DNA from: Gryganskiella cystojenkinii
Lineage: Eukaryota; Mortierellomycota; Mortierellomycetes; Mortierellales; Mortierellaceae
NCBI GenBank assembly: GCA_015852425.1
Contig: JAAAIG010000033.1
Location: 1 to 64,000, forward strand
Length of the DNA stretch: 64,000 nt
Direction of reading: 5' to 3'
The notes beneath the pieces are model-generated. The model was not told the DNA's origin. It made no database searches and saw only the letters and a program-made list of their open reading frames with translations. Each line of letters opens with the position of its first letter. Position 1 is the first letter of the stretch. This document shows, piece after piece, positions 37,828 to 45,919 of the stretch. A program made the position numbers and the translations under genes.

Positions 37828-40298
37828 CTATTGGGCGCCTTGTTGCTGCTGCTGTTGTTGGTACCAAGATGGATGTTGATGGTGCTGCTGGTGGAGTTGA
37901 TAGCCTGGTCGTTGGTTCACAACCGAAGCAAGTCCTGCTTGATGCATCGATGGCGAAGGAGGATGGGAAGAGGCTCGGCTGTTGAGGGATGTAGGGGTCA
38001 ACATCGAAGCTGGGGTCATCAGTGGTGAGGCTCGCATCATAGTCGATGGTGCTCCTGAACTAGCCGCAGATGAGAAACCGCGCGTATCAATTGTCGGGTA
38101 GTGAGGGAAGTTACTGCTCTCATAGCCGTAAGCAGGTGTCGGGTAAGAGTAAGGGTGGCTCGGATCCATCCTTTGAGAAGAAGGTGAGGCGATTCCGAGA
38201 TTATACCGGAATGCCTGTACAATCTCTTCTAGAGTTTGTTGTCGGTCATTGGGGTCTTCACTCCACGCCTTTGTATAGATCTGGTAATACCACTCAGGGG
38301 TGCCGTCGATGCGGCTCTCACGCATGCCTGGACTAAATGTCGAGGGATCCTTGAACGGATACCGGCCTGCCAAGATGAACCAGTAGAGGACGCCCAAAGC
38401 AAAGATGTCGCACCGGATATCATACCGGGGACGGTTCTTGGACATGCGCTCTGGCGCCATGAACTGCCATACGCCTCCAAACTGTTGACTCGAGACCTGA
38501 TTCTTATTGTCACGGATACGTCGGAGACCAAAGTCCGTGAGCCTGGCTCGGTATCGTCCTTGGTTCGGCTGAGGGTTAGGTCGGAGATCGATCAAGATGT
38601 TTTTCGGATGCAAGTCGCCATGGTGATATCCACATTTCAAAAGATGGTCCAGACCGACAGCAATGTCCATGGCGAGATACAGCTTGTCGGTCAGCGTAGG
38701 TGCCTCGAGCAGATCCTTGGGCTTTTCCAAAAGTTTGGTGAGGTCTCCGTGTTCGTAATACTGCATGATCATGAACCGGTCACCCTTGCGTTCGTCTTCG
38801 CTGTTGCGGATGGCGATTCCATAGAACTGAACAATGTTGTCGTGCTGTTTGCACTGGCTCATCACCTCAACCTGTTATTTTTGGAAGCACAAACGAGATG
38901 GATGGAGAAAAAAGAAAACAATTACACAAGCAAACGCACAAGCGAAAAGAGCACAAAGAAGCATTGTTAGTCTTGAACAACCCAACAGGCGGTCAGTCCA
39001 CATGGACACAACAAACAACAAACAACGGGAACAACAACGGCAGCCAGCAAAAGGGTCGCAGCAGCACTTCATTGTCTCGTGAGAAAGCATGAACGCCGCA
39101 TAATTCCACGAGTTAATACCTCTTTGTCAAACAACTTGATGATCTTTTCGGGTTTGTGCTTTGTATCGATAAGAGACTTGAGGATGACATAGGTTTGGTG
39201 CAACTGCCAGAATGCACGTCGAATTTCCCCGTTGCCACCAGTTGCGATCCTTTGGCGTTGTGAGAACTCGCTCAGGTAGTCAAAATGAGCGACGGGCGGG
39301 ATATTGGTCGGGATCATGTTCAGGACCGAGGCCACAAAGAAATCATCCGAGAGAGAACCCTCGGGACAGTCGCCAGATGGAGGAGAGATCGAAGGCGAGG
39401 GCGAAAGGGGAACCATGCGCGGACTTTTTGTATATTCGTTTTGTTGTTGCTGCAGGTGGGGTGGGAAATAACCCGCGGCGGTCGAGTTCCCGTAATCGAG
39501 GGAGGGCATCTCTGTGTCAGGCGTCCCACCATACGAATTTGCGGGCCAGGCGGGAGAGGATGGAGCGGAAGAAGCTGAGGTCGGGTGAGCAATAGGTTGA
39601 CCCTGGAAGTACCTCTGCTGCTGTTGTGGTTGTTGCTGTTGCCGAAGGGTTTGTTGGTGATACGGCTGCTGTCCCTGGAGAGGCTGCTGAGGTGCAGCAG
39701 ATGGTGCATGGGCGGGATGACTCAGCCTTTGTTGTTGATGTTGCTGTTGATCCTGCTGACGATGGAATGGAGAATCGTCCTCGAGAGACTGTTGCTGCTG
39801 TTGCATCTGCTCAAGCTGGAGTTGATAGTGGCGCTGTTGCTCGAGAGGGTTGTTTGCGTTCGGGTTATTGCGAGGGTTGATTCTGCTTTCGAAGTTCATG
39901 TTTTGACTCTGGGTAGAGTTTTCAGAATGACTCAGACTGGGCATGGACGACATGGACATGTCCTCGGTCTGGATCTGCTGCGTAGGATAGCTAGTTGCGT
40001 TGTTGTTGTTATTTTGGTTGCCATAGTAATGATAATGGTTTGCGGTTGCGGTTGGATAGTTGGTATTGCTGTGATTGCTACTCCCAGGAGTGTATGTAGT
40101 TTGAGGTTGATAGGGTTGCTGTTGTTGCAGGTTATTTTGAAAAGGTAGATTATGCTGGTGAGGTTGAGGGATGGGCAATGGAATCAGACGAGGCGAACGA
40201 GGAATCGGCTGTTGTTGTTGCCGAGGGGATGGGAACTGTTGGTGCTGATGCTGTGGAGAGTAGTACCCATAAGGGTTGGACCCAGACGGAGAGTGCAT
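37828..40298 (-). CDS. Protein kinase (TKL/Tyr-kinase-like) with Q-rich N-terminus
   Basis: The model is complement(join(37828..38871, 39120..40298)) and gives 740 residues. The first 270 residues are glutamine-, proline- and asparagine-rich. The kinase domain runs from about 345 to 620. The glycine loop is ATGGNGEIRRAFW, the ATP-anchoring Lys374 is in YVILKSL, the catalytic loop is HHGDLHPKN (Asp479), the metal Asp506 is in LTDFGL, and MAPE is present. All catalytic residues are kept, but the HRD arginine is Gly, so activation-loop control is probably of the non-RD kind. Kinases with HGDLHPKN are abundant in early-diverging fungi. The 38872-39119 intron is 248 bases. The C-terminal tail is again low-complexity. 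Substrate unknown. Confidence 0.87.
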
Positions 40299-40470
40299 TT
40301 TTCTTTTTCTTTTGTTTATCAATGATGCTGTCGAGAATGGTTGCGGATATCGATAAGGAATGAGGAAGAAAAAAAGAGAACATTAAAGACTGGCAAAGCA
40401 CCCATGGCAGCAGCGCAATATGACCCATGGGTGACTCGAGCGGGGATGCTTTGTCCCTGGAAAAAAAAGT

Positions 40471-40819: not shown

Positions 40820-43800
40820 ATGACCTCCTTCATCGTCACTGAACCAACACCAGCCTCACTCTCAAAGGCCACGGTCTCGATCCAGGGTATGACCTGTGCG
40901 AGCTGTGTCCGCGCCATTGAAACCTCCCTCCAAGCTCTTCCAAGCGTCCAGCCCGGATCGGTCTCTGTGAACTTGCTTCTTGGCCAAGCCACTCTCAAGG
41001 CCTCACCCCTCCTCTGTCCGCCTGACCTGATCGCAGAGACGATCGAGAATGCAGGATATGAATCTTCGCTCCCTCGATATGCTGATGCCATCTCCTCGTT
41101 CTCCTCGTCCACTTCTGCTGCAAAGAGTGAAATTAACACAATCTATTCCGATCGAGTCAACAGCAATCGATACAAGGCATCCCTCACCATCTCCCATATG
41201 TTTTGCTCCTCTTGTACCTCCAAGGTTGAATCCCTCTTGAAATCCCTTCACGGTGTCATCCCTACCTCTATTCAAGTCTCACTCGCAACTGGAAACGCTC
41301 AGTTTGAATACCGCACGAAGATGTCGTCTGACTCGACTTCCACCATCATCTCCTCCTACTCAATCTCGGAAAAGATCAGGGACCTGGGATTCGAAGCCAA
41401 TCATATCAAGATCGAAGCTCTTCCAGACGATGATGATGGAAAGACCATGGCTAGCCTTATCGAAAAGGACCCCTCTGGAATCAATGCAGGTACAGGGACG
41501 ACAACCACCAGACTGGACATCTCAGGCATGACCTGCGCTAGCTGTGTCAGTGCCATTGAAAGTAAGTAAACGAGTTATCCTTTTTTCTTACCATGTCTAT
41601 CGTGTCTCGAACATACAAGCTAACTATCAACTTTCTTTTCTCTTCTTTTCTTTTCTTTTCTTTCCCTTAGCCTCCTTGATGGGTCTCAAGGGCATCGTTC
41701 AAGTCCAGGTCAACCTACTCGCGAAATCCGGTGTGATCGTTCACGATCCCACCATCATCGGCGTCCGCGACTTGATCACAGCCGTCGAAGATACCGGATT
41801 CGATGTCTCCCTAGCAGCCGATGACGCCGTCTTGAACAGGAATGCGCTTCAGGACAAGATCAAACGGGAAGAGCTCTTACTTCGTCGCCGTCTCCTCCTA
41901 TCTTTGGTCTTTGCCATTCCCATGTTTATTGTTTCTATGGTCATGATGATGATGCTCCCGAAATCCAACTCAGTTCGTCAAGGACTTATGCGCGAGGTGA
42001 TTCCTGGATTGAGGATTCAGGACATCGTCATGTTTATCCTCGCCACCCCTGTCCAATTTTGGCTCGCGCAACCTTTCTACCGTAAGGCGTATCGCGCCCT
42101 TCGCTATACCCGAACTGCCAACATGGAGACTCTTGTCGCCCTGGGAACCAGTGTCGCCTATTTCGCCTCTCTCGGAAGCATCATTGCCGCCATGGCCACC
42201 TCAAAGCCGCAACATCAAATGGACATGGGCAAGCCTTCAACATCGGGAGTCGACTTTTTCGAGACTTCCGTCTTTTTGGTCACGTTTATTAACCTCGGCA
42301 AATGGCTCGAGGCCATGGCCAAAGGCAAGACTGCAGAGACAATCACGAAACTTATGGACCTCCAACCCGACACTGCTACCTTGGTCAGACCCGACGAGAC
42401 CCTGGAAGAGATCCCCGCGTCCCTAATTCAGGTCGGTGATATCCTCCTCGTCAACGCTGGTGGTCGCATTCCCTGTGATGGTTTGCTTTGGAAGGGCAAC
42501 ACGATGGTGGACGAGGCCATGATCACGGGAGAGTCTCTCCCAGTACAAAAGACGGAGCGCAAGAGCGCTCTTATCAGTGCCTCCATCAACCTCACGTCCA
42601 GTATTCAGGTCAAAGCCACCAAGGTTGGCAAGGACACGACACTCTCTCGAATTATTCAATTGGTTCAGGATGCACAGGCGAGTCCCAAGGCGCCGATCGA
42701 GGCCCTCGGTGACAAGATTTCTGGAGTCTTTGTCCCCGCTGTAATCATCCTCGCTCTTTTGACGTTCACTGGTTGGGCCGTTGCTGGTTCTCGCGGAGCG
42801 ATCCCTGAAAGTTGGCTGCCCGAGGGCGAGAGCTACTGGATCTATGCGACCCTTTATGCCGTTGCTGTCCTGGTCATTGCCTGTCCCTGTGCTCTTGGCC
42901 TCGCTTCTCCTGCTGCAGTCATGGTCGGTACTGGTGTCGCAGCCAAACATGGTATCCTTGTTAAAGGTGGTGGATTCGCTCTCGAGATGGCCAAGCGACT
43001 CGATATCGTTGTCTTTGACAAAACTGGAACGTTGACGACCGGCAAGCCCAAGTGGACCGACTCTTGGATTCTCCCTGCGTCGAATCAGCAGGACAGAGAG
43101 ATTATTCTTCAGATCCTTGGTAAAGTCGAGGCTGGAAGTAGCCACCCTGTTGCACTCGCTGTCGCCAGGGGAGCTGCGGAACAGATCTACGGTACCCCTA
43201 TCGTCGACGACGGCGATGAGCAGAATGAGCAAGATTTTTCCGCCGTGTTGCAGAAGCAATTTAACCACGTCAAGGTTGCGCACATGCGTGAAGTCGCTGG
43301 CCGTGGTCTCTCCGCGACTTTGACTCTGGCAAACCCTCTGACGGTCGAAGGTTATGGTCAATTTCGAGCCCTTAATGTCTTGGTCGGAAACGAGAAGTGG
43401 ATGCAGGAGAACAATGCTCATTACCCGACCCAATCCTCCAAAGATGATCGAGAGGCTGAGCTTGGACGATGGCAGTCTGAGGGTAAATCTGTGGTCCTGT
43501 GCGCAATCAGTCCAGCGATCAACAATGGTGGCGATTCCTCTTCCCAGCTGAACGACAGGGTCTCCCTCGATGCTGCGACAATAGTCAGTGGAAGCACTTG
43601 CAAGTGCGAGCTCTGTGAGTGTATTGATTGCAACTGCACATCCAACCCGGGTGCGGTCAACATTCCCTGGATTGTGGCCCAGGTTGCTGTGGCGGATACG
43701 GCTCGTCCCGAAGCAGCTCAGGTGATTGCAGGACTTCGGGCTCAAGGAATCGAGACGTGGATGTTGACCGGTGATCACCCAACGACGGCTCAGACAATTG

Positions 43801-44405
43801 CACGTCAGCTCGGAATCTCGCAAGTCATTGCGGGCGTTCTTCCAGAAGACAAGGCTGCTAAGGTGCGTCAGTTGCAACAGGCCGGTCGTCCTCAGTCCTC
43901 GTCTCGTTGGCTCAGGAGTAAGAAGGATCAAAAGGACGGAAACTCGGTTGAACTGCCCAGCATGCGCTCGTCGAATTCCTCTTCAAGACCCTATCAATCC
44001 ATGCGTCCAGCGATTGTGGCTATGGTCGGTGATGGAATCAATGATTCTCCAGCGTTGGCTCAATCTAACTTGGGCATATCTGTTGGATCTGCAACCGATA
44101 TTGCCATCGAGGCGGCCTCGATTGTCCTGCTTCGTGACACCCTCACGGATTTGTTGGTGATGAGAGATCTGGCCAAGACGGTCGTGCGACGCATCCAGAT
44201 CAACTTTTTATGGGCATTCATGTACAACGTCGTGATGATCCCGATCGCGGCGGGAGTCCTTGTCGCATGGTCGAGATCTGCAGTCATTGGACCCTCCTGG
44301 GCAGGATTGGCCATGGCCGCCTCGAGTGTCAGTGTCGTGCTTTCGAGTTTGAGATTGAGAGCCTACAAGTACAAGGCTCCCAAGGTGTCAAGTTCTGCTT
44401 TGTAG
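40820..44405 (+). CDS. CCC2: Copper-transporting P1B-type ATPase (Ccc2/ATP7-like)
   Basis: The model joins 40820..41561 and 41671..44405 and gives 1158 residues. Three N-terminal heavy-metal-binding domains are visible: GMTCASC (Cys26/Cys29), a variant SHMFCSSC (Cys129/Cys132) and GMTCASC (Cys239/Cys242). The pump core has TGES (533-536), the membrane CPC (652-654), the phosphorylated Asp697 in DKTGTLT, and GDGIND (1034-1039). The enzyme moves Cu(I) out of the cytosol, into the Golgi in Ccc2-type proteins, to load copper enzymes. Unusual is a cysteine cluster CKCELCECIDCNC at 891-903 inside the cytoplasmic nucleotide-binding/phosphorylation part. The promoter has a TATA box, in keeping with an inducible gene. 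Confidence 0.95.
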
Positions 44406-44822: not shown

Positions 44823-45919
44823 ATGTCCTACGCCAACGGAACAGCAGGAGCAGGGGCAGGAGTGGGGGGTATGCCTCAGTACACGCCAGAAGAGATTGCC
44901 TACTGGGCATCACAGGGTTACGTCCTTGACACATCAGCTACCACCACTGCTGCTGTCGATCCTGCTGCTGCCTACTATAGCGCACAACCACCACAACAAC
45001 AATCACAGCCCTATGGACCAACCTACCCATCAATACCGTCTTCCTCGTCATCAACCTACGGAGCCGGATCCTACAACACGAACAGGTCCTATGGCGGAGG
45101 AGGTCGAGGCTATCATCATCATCAAAACAACATCATCAACCCAGAGCCTGAGGATTTCAACAAGCTCTTTGTTGATCCCAAGAAACAGCAGGAGGAGGCC
45201 GCCGCTGCAGCTGCCAAGGCAGAAGAAGAGGCTGCCGCCGAAAAGGCAAAAGCCGCTGCCACTGTTATCAGAAAGGCCGCTGGACAAACCTGGGAAGACT
45301 CCACCCTACTGGATTTCGACGAAAGTAAGTGCTCTTTTGTTTTATATCGACAGTGACTATGATAGCAGAGCTATTTTTCTTGTTTTCTAACTACTTTTTT
45401 TGCCATCACGTTCTAGACGACTTTCGGCTGTTTGCAGGTGATTTGGGAAACGAGGTCACGGACGACTTGTTGACAAAGACATTTTCAAAATACCCCTCCT
45501 TCTTGAAGGCTAAGGTCGTCCGGGACAAGAGGACGCAAAAGAGTAAAGGATACGGATTCATCTCCTTTGCCGAGCCAGACGATTTCGCAAGGGCCTGGAA
45601 AGAAATGGATGGTAAGTTAAACATGAAAATATTGCCTAGTGATCAAAGGCCTTATGACGTCTGTATCATCTCGGACTCTCATGCTCGATTATATCTAACG
45701 CTTCTGCTCTGCGCCTCTGCTTTCATCTGTTCTCTCATCTCAGGAAAATATGTCGGAAACAGACCCATCAAGCTAAGAAAGAGTCAATGGAAGGATCGTA
45801 ACGTGGAGATTGTTCGGGAACCCAAGGCTGCACGTGGACCCTACGATCCCGAGGCCTTGACCCGAAAGGAACGAGCCAAACCCTACAAGGTCAAGAAACT
45901 GAACAATGCAGGAAAGTAA
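44823..45919 (+). CDS. RBM42: RBM42-type RNA-binding protein
   Basis: The model joins 44823..45324, 45417..45611 and 45744..45919 and gives 290 residues. The N-terminal half is Pro/Gln/Tyr-rich, then an Ala/Glu/Lys helix (about 120-150) leads to AAGQTWEDSTLLDFDEN. A single RRM follows (about 168-250) with RNP2 RLFAGDLG and RNP1 KGYGFISF. The end WKDRNVEIV through RKERAKPYKVKK is characteristic of the RBM42 group. Animal RBM42 works in splicing and with hnRNP K; the fungal role is not established. Introns 1 and 2 flank the RRM core exon in matching phase. Confidence 0.88.

What the first reader, a model, noticed from the sequence alone, without database searches (positions are those of the whole stretch)
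43599..43637. Metallothionein-like cysteine cluster inside the ATP-binding part of a copper pump
Seen: residues 891-903 of the copper ATPase read C-K-C-E-L-C-E-C-I-D-C-N-C, six cysteines in CxCxxCxCxxCxC spacing, between the phosphorylated Asp697 and GDGIND at 1034. Known: CxC-rich strings of this spacing are the copper-thiolate ligands of fungal metallothioneins, while metal ligands of P1B pumps normally sit only in N-terminal HMA domains and the membrane CPC. Inference: the insert may be a built-in Cu(I) buffer or sensor that tunes ATP hydrolysis, a regulatory site I do not know from Ccc2 or ATP7A/B.
Basis: partly seen in the sequence, partly recalled or inferred. Interest (0 to 1): 0.75.

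Follow-up and report, generated by a model that had tools for sequence, protein, structure and literature searches.

The report
Copper-pump cysteine loop in early-diverging fungi
A fungal copper pump carries a short cysteine-rich loop, of the kind cells use to grip copper, inside the part that handles ATP; related moulds in two large groups keep it, so it is probably a real copper-binding and perhaps copper-sensing device.

Summary
In detail: residues 891-903 (window 43599-43637) of a 1158-residue copper ATPase read CKCELCECIDCNC. They lie in a 31-64 residue insert between the last two strands of the nucleotide-binding domain; the two other copper ATPases found in this genome have only a short turn there. 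It is not an error. Of 143 relatives, the CxCxxCxC core lies in the N/P domain of 49 of 49 Mortierellomycota-like, 40 of 41 Mucoromycotina and 2 of 2 Endogonales proteins plus 2 of 2 fragments, but of 0 of 8 plant and 0 of 41 Glomeromycotina, Calcarisporiella, Basidiobolus, chytrid and unnamed proteins. A tree without the insert columns puts the 16 sampled bearers in one clade (100/99). The model leaves the loop disordered on the N domain. Best reading: a flexible Cu(I)-thiolate loop that binds cytosolic copper, more likely a regulatory sensor than a plain buffer. Copper binding and regulation are inferred, not shown. The label 'Ccc2' is doubtful. Four chytrid relatives carry the same core at the N terminus, which suggests a portable module. 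No Dikarya protein was sampled. New variant of a known kind.

The parts
40820..41561 (+). exon 1 of the copper ATPase gene (Met1 onward; HMA 1, HMA 2 and the start of HMA 3)
   Evidence: three HMA stretches by Pfam PF00403
41562..41670 (+). intron (GT...AG)
   Evidence: the splice gives the HMA 3 reading AIETSLMGL
41671..44405 (+). exon 2: end of HMA 3, membrane, actuator, P and N domains, stop codon
   Evidence: frame 41673-44402 is open
42882..42890 (+). CPC copper-translocation motif, residues 652-654
43017..43031 (+). DKTGT phosphorylation motif, Asp697
43488..43514 (+). N-domain strand before the insert (residues 854-862)
   Evidence: AlphaFold2 model strand 606-614 of the piece (piece residue + 248)
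43509..43652 (+). insert of about 48 residues (861-908), serine-rich linker plus cysteine cluster; absent from the two paralogues
   Evidence: HMMER alignment to ATP7B (7xuk) jumps from query 611 to 669 while ATP7B moves 1183 to 1190
43599..43637 (+). cysteine cluster CKCELCECIDCNC, residues 891-903: proposed Cu(I)-thiolate loop
43668..43694 (+). N-domain strand after the insert (residues 914-922), leading back into the P domain
   Evidence: model strand 666-674 of the piece
44028..44045 (+). GDGIND motif, residue 1034

Best explanation
The segment is a lineage-specific Cu(I)-thiolate loop grafted into the turn between the last two strands of the nucleotide-binding domain of a P1B-1 copper pump. 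Shown: the insert, its conserved cysteines, its place, its absence from the paralogues and from the outgroups sampled, and predicted disorder. Inferred: in the reducing cytosol the six (Mortierellomycota, Umbelopsis) or seven (Mucorales, Endogonales) cysteines bind several Cu(I) ions as one thiolate cluster, perhaps Cu4S6, which collapses the flexible loop into a compact knot. Inferred with less support: the knot acts as a second copper sensor beside the HMA domains. Empty, the long loop hinders closure of the N domain on the P domain or its contact with the HMA domains; loaded, it releases the pump, so that ATP is spent on export only when cytosolic copper is high. My estimate is about 0.8 for Cu(I) binding in vivo, and 0.5 for binding with a regulatory role.
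For: CxCxxCxC core in 49 of 49, 40 of 41 and 2 of 2 proteins of the bearing lineages (plus 2 of 2 fragments), 0 of 49 others. Among the 48 proteins chosen because they match the six-cysteine spacing (47 relatives and the window), the letters between the cysteines are also held (Leu895 and Ile899 48 of 48, Asn902 47, Glu894 46, Lys892 44), while the linker just upstream varies in letters and length. One clade, one change, on a tree built without the insert columns. Loop of low confidence between two confident strands. Same spacing class as the REP motifs of the copper-responsive regulators Mac1 (CXCX4CXCX2CX2H) and Cuf1 (CXCX3CXCX2CX2H) (PMC4992176, passages). Host protein is a copper ATPase: TIGR01511 515.7 bits against a cut-off of 397, CPC. 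[quoted passage not shown] Four chytrid relatives carry the same core at the N terminus.
Against: No metal binding has been measured, and the spacing does not fix the metal: CXCXXCXC is a building block of Tetrahymena metallothioneins tentatively classed as cadmium (and zinc) thioneins (PMC1808422, passages), and plant metallothioneins have CxCxxxCxCxxCxC (PMC6212650, passages). No coupling of loop to ATP hydrolysis is shown; the loop may only store copper. P0014 (Lobosporangium) has five of the six cysteines. The outer cysteines differ between lineages, so only a four-cysteine core is common. The low confidence of the loop in the model may partly reflect a 45-row alignment. Outgroup pumps do without it.
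Confidence: 0.5

Rival explanations
1. Local copper buffer or relay, not a regulator: the loop is a tethered metallothionein that holds Cu(I) near the pump, takes it from glutathione or Atx1 and hands it to the HMA domains or the membrane entry, raising export capacity without touching the ATPase cycle.
For: Metallothionein-like cysteine spacing; long flexible linkers suit a tether; the pump already has three HMA domains that could do the sensing.
Against: It sits in the N domain, away from the membrane entry, a poor place for a relay; this is inference from topology, no distance was computed.
Confidence: 0.27
2. Structural or sensing site for another metal: Zn(II), Cd(II) or an Fe-S cluster, stabilising the insert or reporting that metal.
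For: CxC and CxxC pairs also bind Zn, Cd and Fe-S (recalled); CXCXXCXC occurs in Tetrahymena metallothioneins tentatively classed as cadmium thioneins.
Against: The host is a copper pump by CPC and by TIGR01511; six to seven cysteines within 13-19 residues with CxC repeats suit polynuclear Cu(I) better than one Zn (recalled chemistry).
Confidence: 0.12
3. Trafficking or turnover signal: copper loading of the loop exposes or hides a sorting or degradation signal in the serine-rich linker, moving the pump between Golgi and plasma membrane.
For: Serine-rich variable linkers beside a conserved cluster; copper-dependent trafficking of other copper ATPases (PMC3308323, a section title and passages).
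Against: No conserved linker motif seen by eye in the alignment.
Confidence: 0.08
4. Neutral or accidental insert, or a gene-model or sequencing artefact.
For: The surrounding linker varies freely in sequence and length.
Against: Cysteine core kept in 93 of 94 relatives of the bearing lineages; 4 of 200,000 shuffles reach the core in one protein.
Confidence: 0.03

Closest known systems
P1B-1 copper ATPases (ATP7A/B, HMA4, CopA)
   Same: HMA domains, CPC, DKTGT, GDGIND, overall fold; ATP7B, CopA and HMA4 entries are the best structural matches
   Different: In the two ATP7B alignments seen (7xuk, 7si3) 6 and 4 residues stand where the window has 57 and 55. The known N-domain insert of eukaryotic copper pumps is between strands 3 and 4 (PMC3308323, passages), not here
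Fungal Crp/CRD1-type copper exporters (C. albicans Crp1, A. nidulans CrpA, F. oxysporum CrpF)
   Same: Fungal copper ATPases with extra cysteine motifs besides HMA domains (PMC7549990 section 14; PMC5447758 passages); perhaps the nearest functional class
   Different: Their extra motifs are N-terminal CxxC; here the cluster is in the N domain. No Crp sequence was available for a tree
REP motifs of Mac1 and Cuf1
   Same: CXC, CXC, C in a short run in copper-responsive proteins (PMC4992176 passages)
   Different: CXCX3-4CXCX2CX2H with a terminal His in a transcription factor; here CXCX2CXCX2CXC in a pump
Metallothioneins
   Same: CXCXXCXC building block, thiolate-rich run (PMC1808422, PMC6212650 passages)
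   Different: Not a free small protein; one short cluster inside a 1158-residue enzyme

Membership tests
P1B-1 copper-transporting ATPase | CPC in the membrane, DKTGT, TGE, GDGIND and HMA domains | tested here: met
   3 HMA stretches, TGES at 533
P1B-1 copper-transporting ATPase | score above the curated cut-off of TIGR01511 | tested here: met
   515.7 bits, cut-off 397
P1B-1 copper-transporting ATPase | transports Cu(I) | not testable with these tools
   needs an assay
Ccc2/ATP7 orthologue | closest copper ATPase of its genome to ATP7A/B | tested here: not met
   paralogue on C323 scores 848 bits to ATP7B, window 519; the window query began inside HMA 3, so the gap is inflated; the C703 paralogue was not scored
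Ccc2/ATP7 orthologue | groups with Dikarya Ccc2 in a tree | not tested
   no protein named as Dikarya among the 143
Crp/CRD1-type exporter | groups with Crp1/CrpA in a tree | not tested
   no Crp sequence held
Crp/CRD1-type exporter | CxxC motifs N-terminal of the HMA domains (PMC7549990) | tested here: not met
   the first cysteines are 26 and 29, the HMA 1 pair itself
Metallothionein | small cysteine-rich protein | tested here: not met
   the cluster is part of a 1158-residue pump; a genome search with the 43-residue loop found only this gene
Metallothionein | binds Cu(I) or Zn/Cd through thiolates | not testable with these tools
   needs titration
Mac1/Cuf1 REP motif | CXCX3-4CXCX2CX2H | tested here: not met
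   window is CXCX2CXCX2CXC, no His in the run

The most novel reading that the evidence does not exclude
A portable CxCxxCxC copper switch has been fitted to one family of fungal copper pumps at different places: at the N terminus in some chytrids, and once inside the nucleotide-binding domain in the common ancestor of the Mortierellomycota and Mucoromycotina pumps, where copper loading directly gates ATP use. That would be a copper-responsive allosteric site in the catalytic head of a P-type ATPase, a place where none is known to me.
Probability: 0.3. Interest if true: 0.85.

Novelty: new variant of a known kind. Interest (0 to 1): 0.62.

Why it matters
How copper pumps sense copper is debated, and the discussion in the papers I looked into centres on terminal metal-binding domains (PMC10973460 and PMC11970713, passages). 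A conserved thiolate cluster in the ATP-binding head would offer a second, separable sensor and a natural construct for testing how metal level sets ATP use. It may also mark a shared history of the pumps of two large fungal groups.

Tried and rejected
Chance, local sequencing error and gene-model artefact: rejected by conservation. A retained intron: rejected, because the amino acids are conserved while the length varies in frame. A structural cysteine set common to all P-type ATPases: rejected; 0 of 49 outgroup copper ATPases have it. Within this genome, 20 of the 43 P-type ATPase matches were fetched as loci; of 76 frames of 150 aa or more in those 20 and L021, only the two copies of the window gene (L001, L021) have the core. 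A gene copy or free protein with the same loop in this genome: none found by a 43-residue protein query. The copper-fist family, looked for as a Mac1/Cuf1 comparison, gave no match, but its 14 control genomes rang in 0, so this says nothing. A loop-only protein search with the Endogonales protein found only itself and P0109 among 46 candidates: short queries are too weak to show that other lineages lack the loop. The PDB search with the 29-residue loop gave one chance-level match, E 2.4. The third protein search was meant to reach Dikarya; none is named in its 120 listed rows, so the Dikarya question stays open.

Weak points. Both big protein searches scored about 8000 candidates and list 120, so lineages ranked lower are unseen. 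Lineage groups follow the genus names that the sources give and my knowledge of where those genera belong; I looked none up. Unnamed records (P0001, P0002, P0020, P0026, P0032, P0035 in the Mortierellomycota-like group; P0063, P0067 in the Mucoromycotina group; P0138 among the outgroups) were placed by similarity. Several species appear more than once. Of the 41 outgroup proteins P0103, P0106, P0117, P0121, P0132 and P0133 lack part of the region and P0105 is named partial. P0098, the one Mucoromycotina protein without the core, lacks the preceding strand too, which suggests a faulty gene model. One search dropped 10 of 120 proteins before aligning; the first tree has 53 of the 113 aligned rows, the second 38 rows. 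In the second P0127 and P0142 are long branches, and the order among Glomeromycotina, Basidiobolus with Calcarisporiella, and the bearers is unresolved, so one gain followed by loss in Glomeromycotina is not excluded. No codon-level selection test was made because no DNA of relatives was held.

Full report
What is there. The window lies in a 35-Mb assembly of 1050 contigs; the nearest named relative of this protein is Entomortierella parvispora (P0003, 85% identity over the searched region). The gene runs from 40820 to 44405 on the + strand with one 109-base intron. It encodes 1158 residues with three HMA stretches, an E1-E2 ATPase domain and a hydrolase domain in two stretches (Pfam), TGES at 533, CPC at 652-654, DKTGT at 697 and GDGIND at 1034.

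More than chance. The stretch 697-1067 has 7 cysteines in 371 residues, six of them in 13 residues. Shuffling that stretch 200,000 times gave the four-cysteine core CxCxxCxC 4 times. Of 472 frames of 60 residues or more in the 64-kb window only this gene has the core.

Where it sits. The HMMER alignment to ATP7B (7xuk) stops at query 611 (ATP7B 1183) and resumes at 669 (ATP7B 1190): 57 residues against 6; for 7si3 it is 55 against 4. The alignment of 113 copper ATPases shows the insert between the conserved strand WQSEGKSVVLCA and the strand IVAQVAVADTA. The two other copper ATPases found in this genome, open reading frames on contigs C323 and C703, have TTVLVAINSRFVGWIALSDT and TTVLIAMNDIFVGFISLSDT there, that is, a short turn. 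The AlphaFold2 model of residues 249-1158 (45-row alignment, mean pLDDT 81, pTM 0.75) has strands at piece residues 606-614 and 666-674 and between them a stretch 619-660 with pLDDT under 50, which holds the cluster. The fold as a whole matches ATP7B, CopA and HMA4. So the cluster is on a predicted flexible loop of the N domain, on the cytosolic side by the known topology of these pumps (recalled); the strand after it leads straight back into the P domain. I could not compute its distance to the ATP site.

Who has it. Three searches gave 143 different proteins. The CxCxxCxC core lies in the N/P domain of 49 of 49 Mortierellomycota-like, 40 of 41 Mucoromycotina (Mucorales and Umbelopsis), 2 of 2 Endogonales (Jimgerdemannia) and 2 of 2 Mortierellomycota fragments; of 8 plant proteins 0 have it there, and of 41 Glomeromycotina, Calcarisporiella, Basidiobolus and chytrid proteins and one unnamed protein among them, 0 have it there. 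The six-cysteine spacing CxCxxCxCxxCxC is in 47 of the 49, in the window and in both Endogonales and both fragments; the exceptions are P0014 (last Cys is Tyr) and P0041 (start of the motif missing). The outer cysteines differ in the 40: Mucorales read like CNNACACVVCKCSTNSVCC, Umbelopsis like CENECGCVICNCASHGTC, and Jimgerdemannia reads CQCECEFCECVMCTC. In the 48 Mortierellomycota-like proteins with the six-cysteine spacing (selected by that spacing, so their cysteines are invariant by construction) Leu895 and Ile899 are also invariant and Lys892, Glu894 and Asn902 nearly so, while the linker varies. The insert is 33-64 residues in 48 Mortierellomycota-like rows, 31-50 in 40 Mucoromycotina rows, 60 in the one Endogonales row, 7-11 residues of other sequence in 9 Glomeromycotina rows and 0 in the two paralogues.

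Origin. With the insert columns left out, a careful tree of 38 proteins places all 16 sampled bearers in one clade (bootstrap 100, SH-aLRT 99), with the trait changing once; a quick tree of 53 rows agrees. The drawn root, on the paralogues or on plants, is my choice. One gain at the base of the Mortierellomycota plus Mucoromycotina pumps is the simplest account; an older gain with loss in Glomeromycotina and Calcarisporiella is not excluded.

What kind of pump. The C323 paralogue scores 848 bits to ATP7B, the window 519 (the window query lacked the first two HMA domains). Fungal pumps have been sorted into Ccc2, Crp and Pca types (PMC7549990, section 14 read; compare the CCC2 and CRD1 clades in PMC4196481, section 10 read). 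The window's family could be the Crp/CRD1-type detoxification pump, but no Dikarya reference sequence was available, so this is a suggestion, and the window protein lacks the N-terminal CxxC motifs described for Dikarya Crp proteins.

A parallel. Four chytrid relatives without the N-domain insert (P0134 and P0135 Gaertneriomyces, P0140 Batrachochytrium dendrobatidis, P0143 Kappamyces), of 10 proteins named as chytrids, have the same core at their N terminus: CRCIVCHC twice, CSCLHCNC and CGCENCNC. That two different sites of the same pump family carry the same short pattern argues that the pattern itself, not its place, is what selection kept, and that it serves the pump's business, copper. Common descent of the two modules is not shown.

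How it may work. Cysteine runs with CxC and CxxC spacing serve copper sensing in Mac1 (CXCX4CXCX2CX2H), occur in Cuf1 (CXCX3CXCX2CX2H), and coordinate a tetra-copper cluster in Ace1 (PMC4992176, passages). The same block also occurs in Tetrahymena metallothioneins tentatively classed as cadmium and zinc thioneins (PMC1808422, passages) and, with one more spacer, in plant metallothioneins (PMC6212650, passages), so the metal is inferred from the host pump. For the role I lean to regulation: work on LpCopA proposes that a metal-binding domain inhibits the pump at low copper by interfering with the soluble domains and leaves when copper rises, and an inhibitory nanobody that mimics its tail binds the N domain (PMC11970713, passages); a peripheral metal-binding domain may be autoinhibitory in HMA4 and ATP7B (PMC10973460, passages); and the other known N-domain insert of eukaryotic copper pumps, between strands 3 and 4, was suggested to be regulatory because ATP binding does not need it (PMC3308323, passages). 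A tethered buffer is the main rival.

In print? Searches for Mortierella copper P-type ATPases, cysteine-rich insertions in the nucleotide-binding domain, P1B-ATPases of Mucoromycota, Mucor copper pumps, ATP7B N-domain cysteine clusters and CxCxxCxC with copper listed nothing that announces this loop. I judged by titles and abstract starts and looked into passages or sections of nine papers in which the text bore on the matter; other listed papers were not opened. The library holds open-licence papers only, so this is not proof. PMC7549990 shows a Mucor circinelloides pump in a figure that I could not see.

Noticed in passing
P0134, P0135, P0140, P0143 (chytrid relatives), residues 11-100: N-terminal CxCxxCxC clusters in copper ATPases that lack the N-domain loop (4 of 10 proteins named as chytrids).
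   Followed up: partly
records P0004, P0005, P0008, P0011, P0013 and others: Many Mortierellomycota copper ATPases are named 'serine/threonine protein kinase Ran1' in public records, though their precomputed Pfam domains are those of a copper ATPase; probably a mix-up between the plant copper pump RAN1 and the yeast kinase Ran1 (recalled).
   Followed up: no
window 43887-44012: A second insert, serine- and arginine-rich, about 40 residues, in the P domain just before GDGIND; part of it has pLDDT under 50 (piece 753-770). The Mucor protein P0098 has no such insert.
   Followed up: no
window 41204-41215: The second HMA domain has HMFCSSC instead of GMTCxxC, possibly with a different copper affinity.
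   Followed up: no
Mucoromycotina proteins P0057-P0091: These pumps have up to seven GMTCxxC-like motifs, against two to three in full-length Mortierellomycota proteins and zero to two in Glomeromycotina (two slightly different regex counts).
   Followed up: no
window 44824-45919 (+) and 39069-40382 (-): Neighbours, by eye: downstream a gene that seems to have an RNA-recognition motif; upstream, on the other strand, a long Gln-rich open frame.
   Followed up: no
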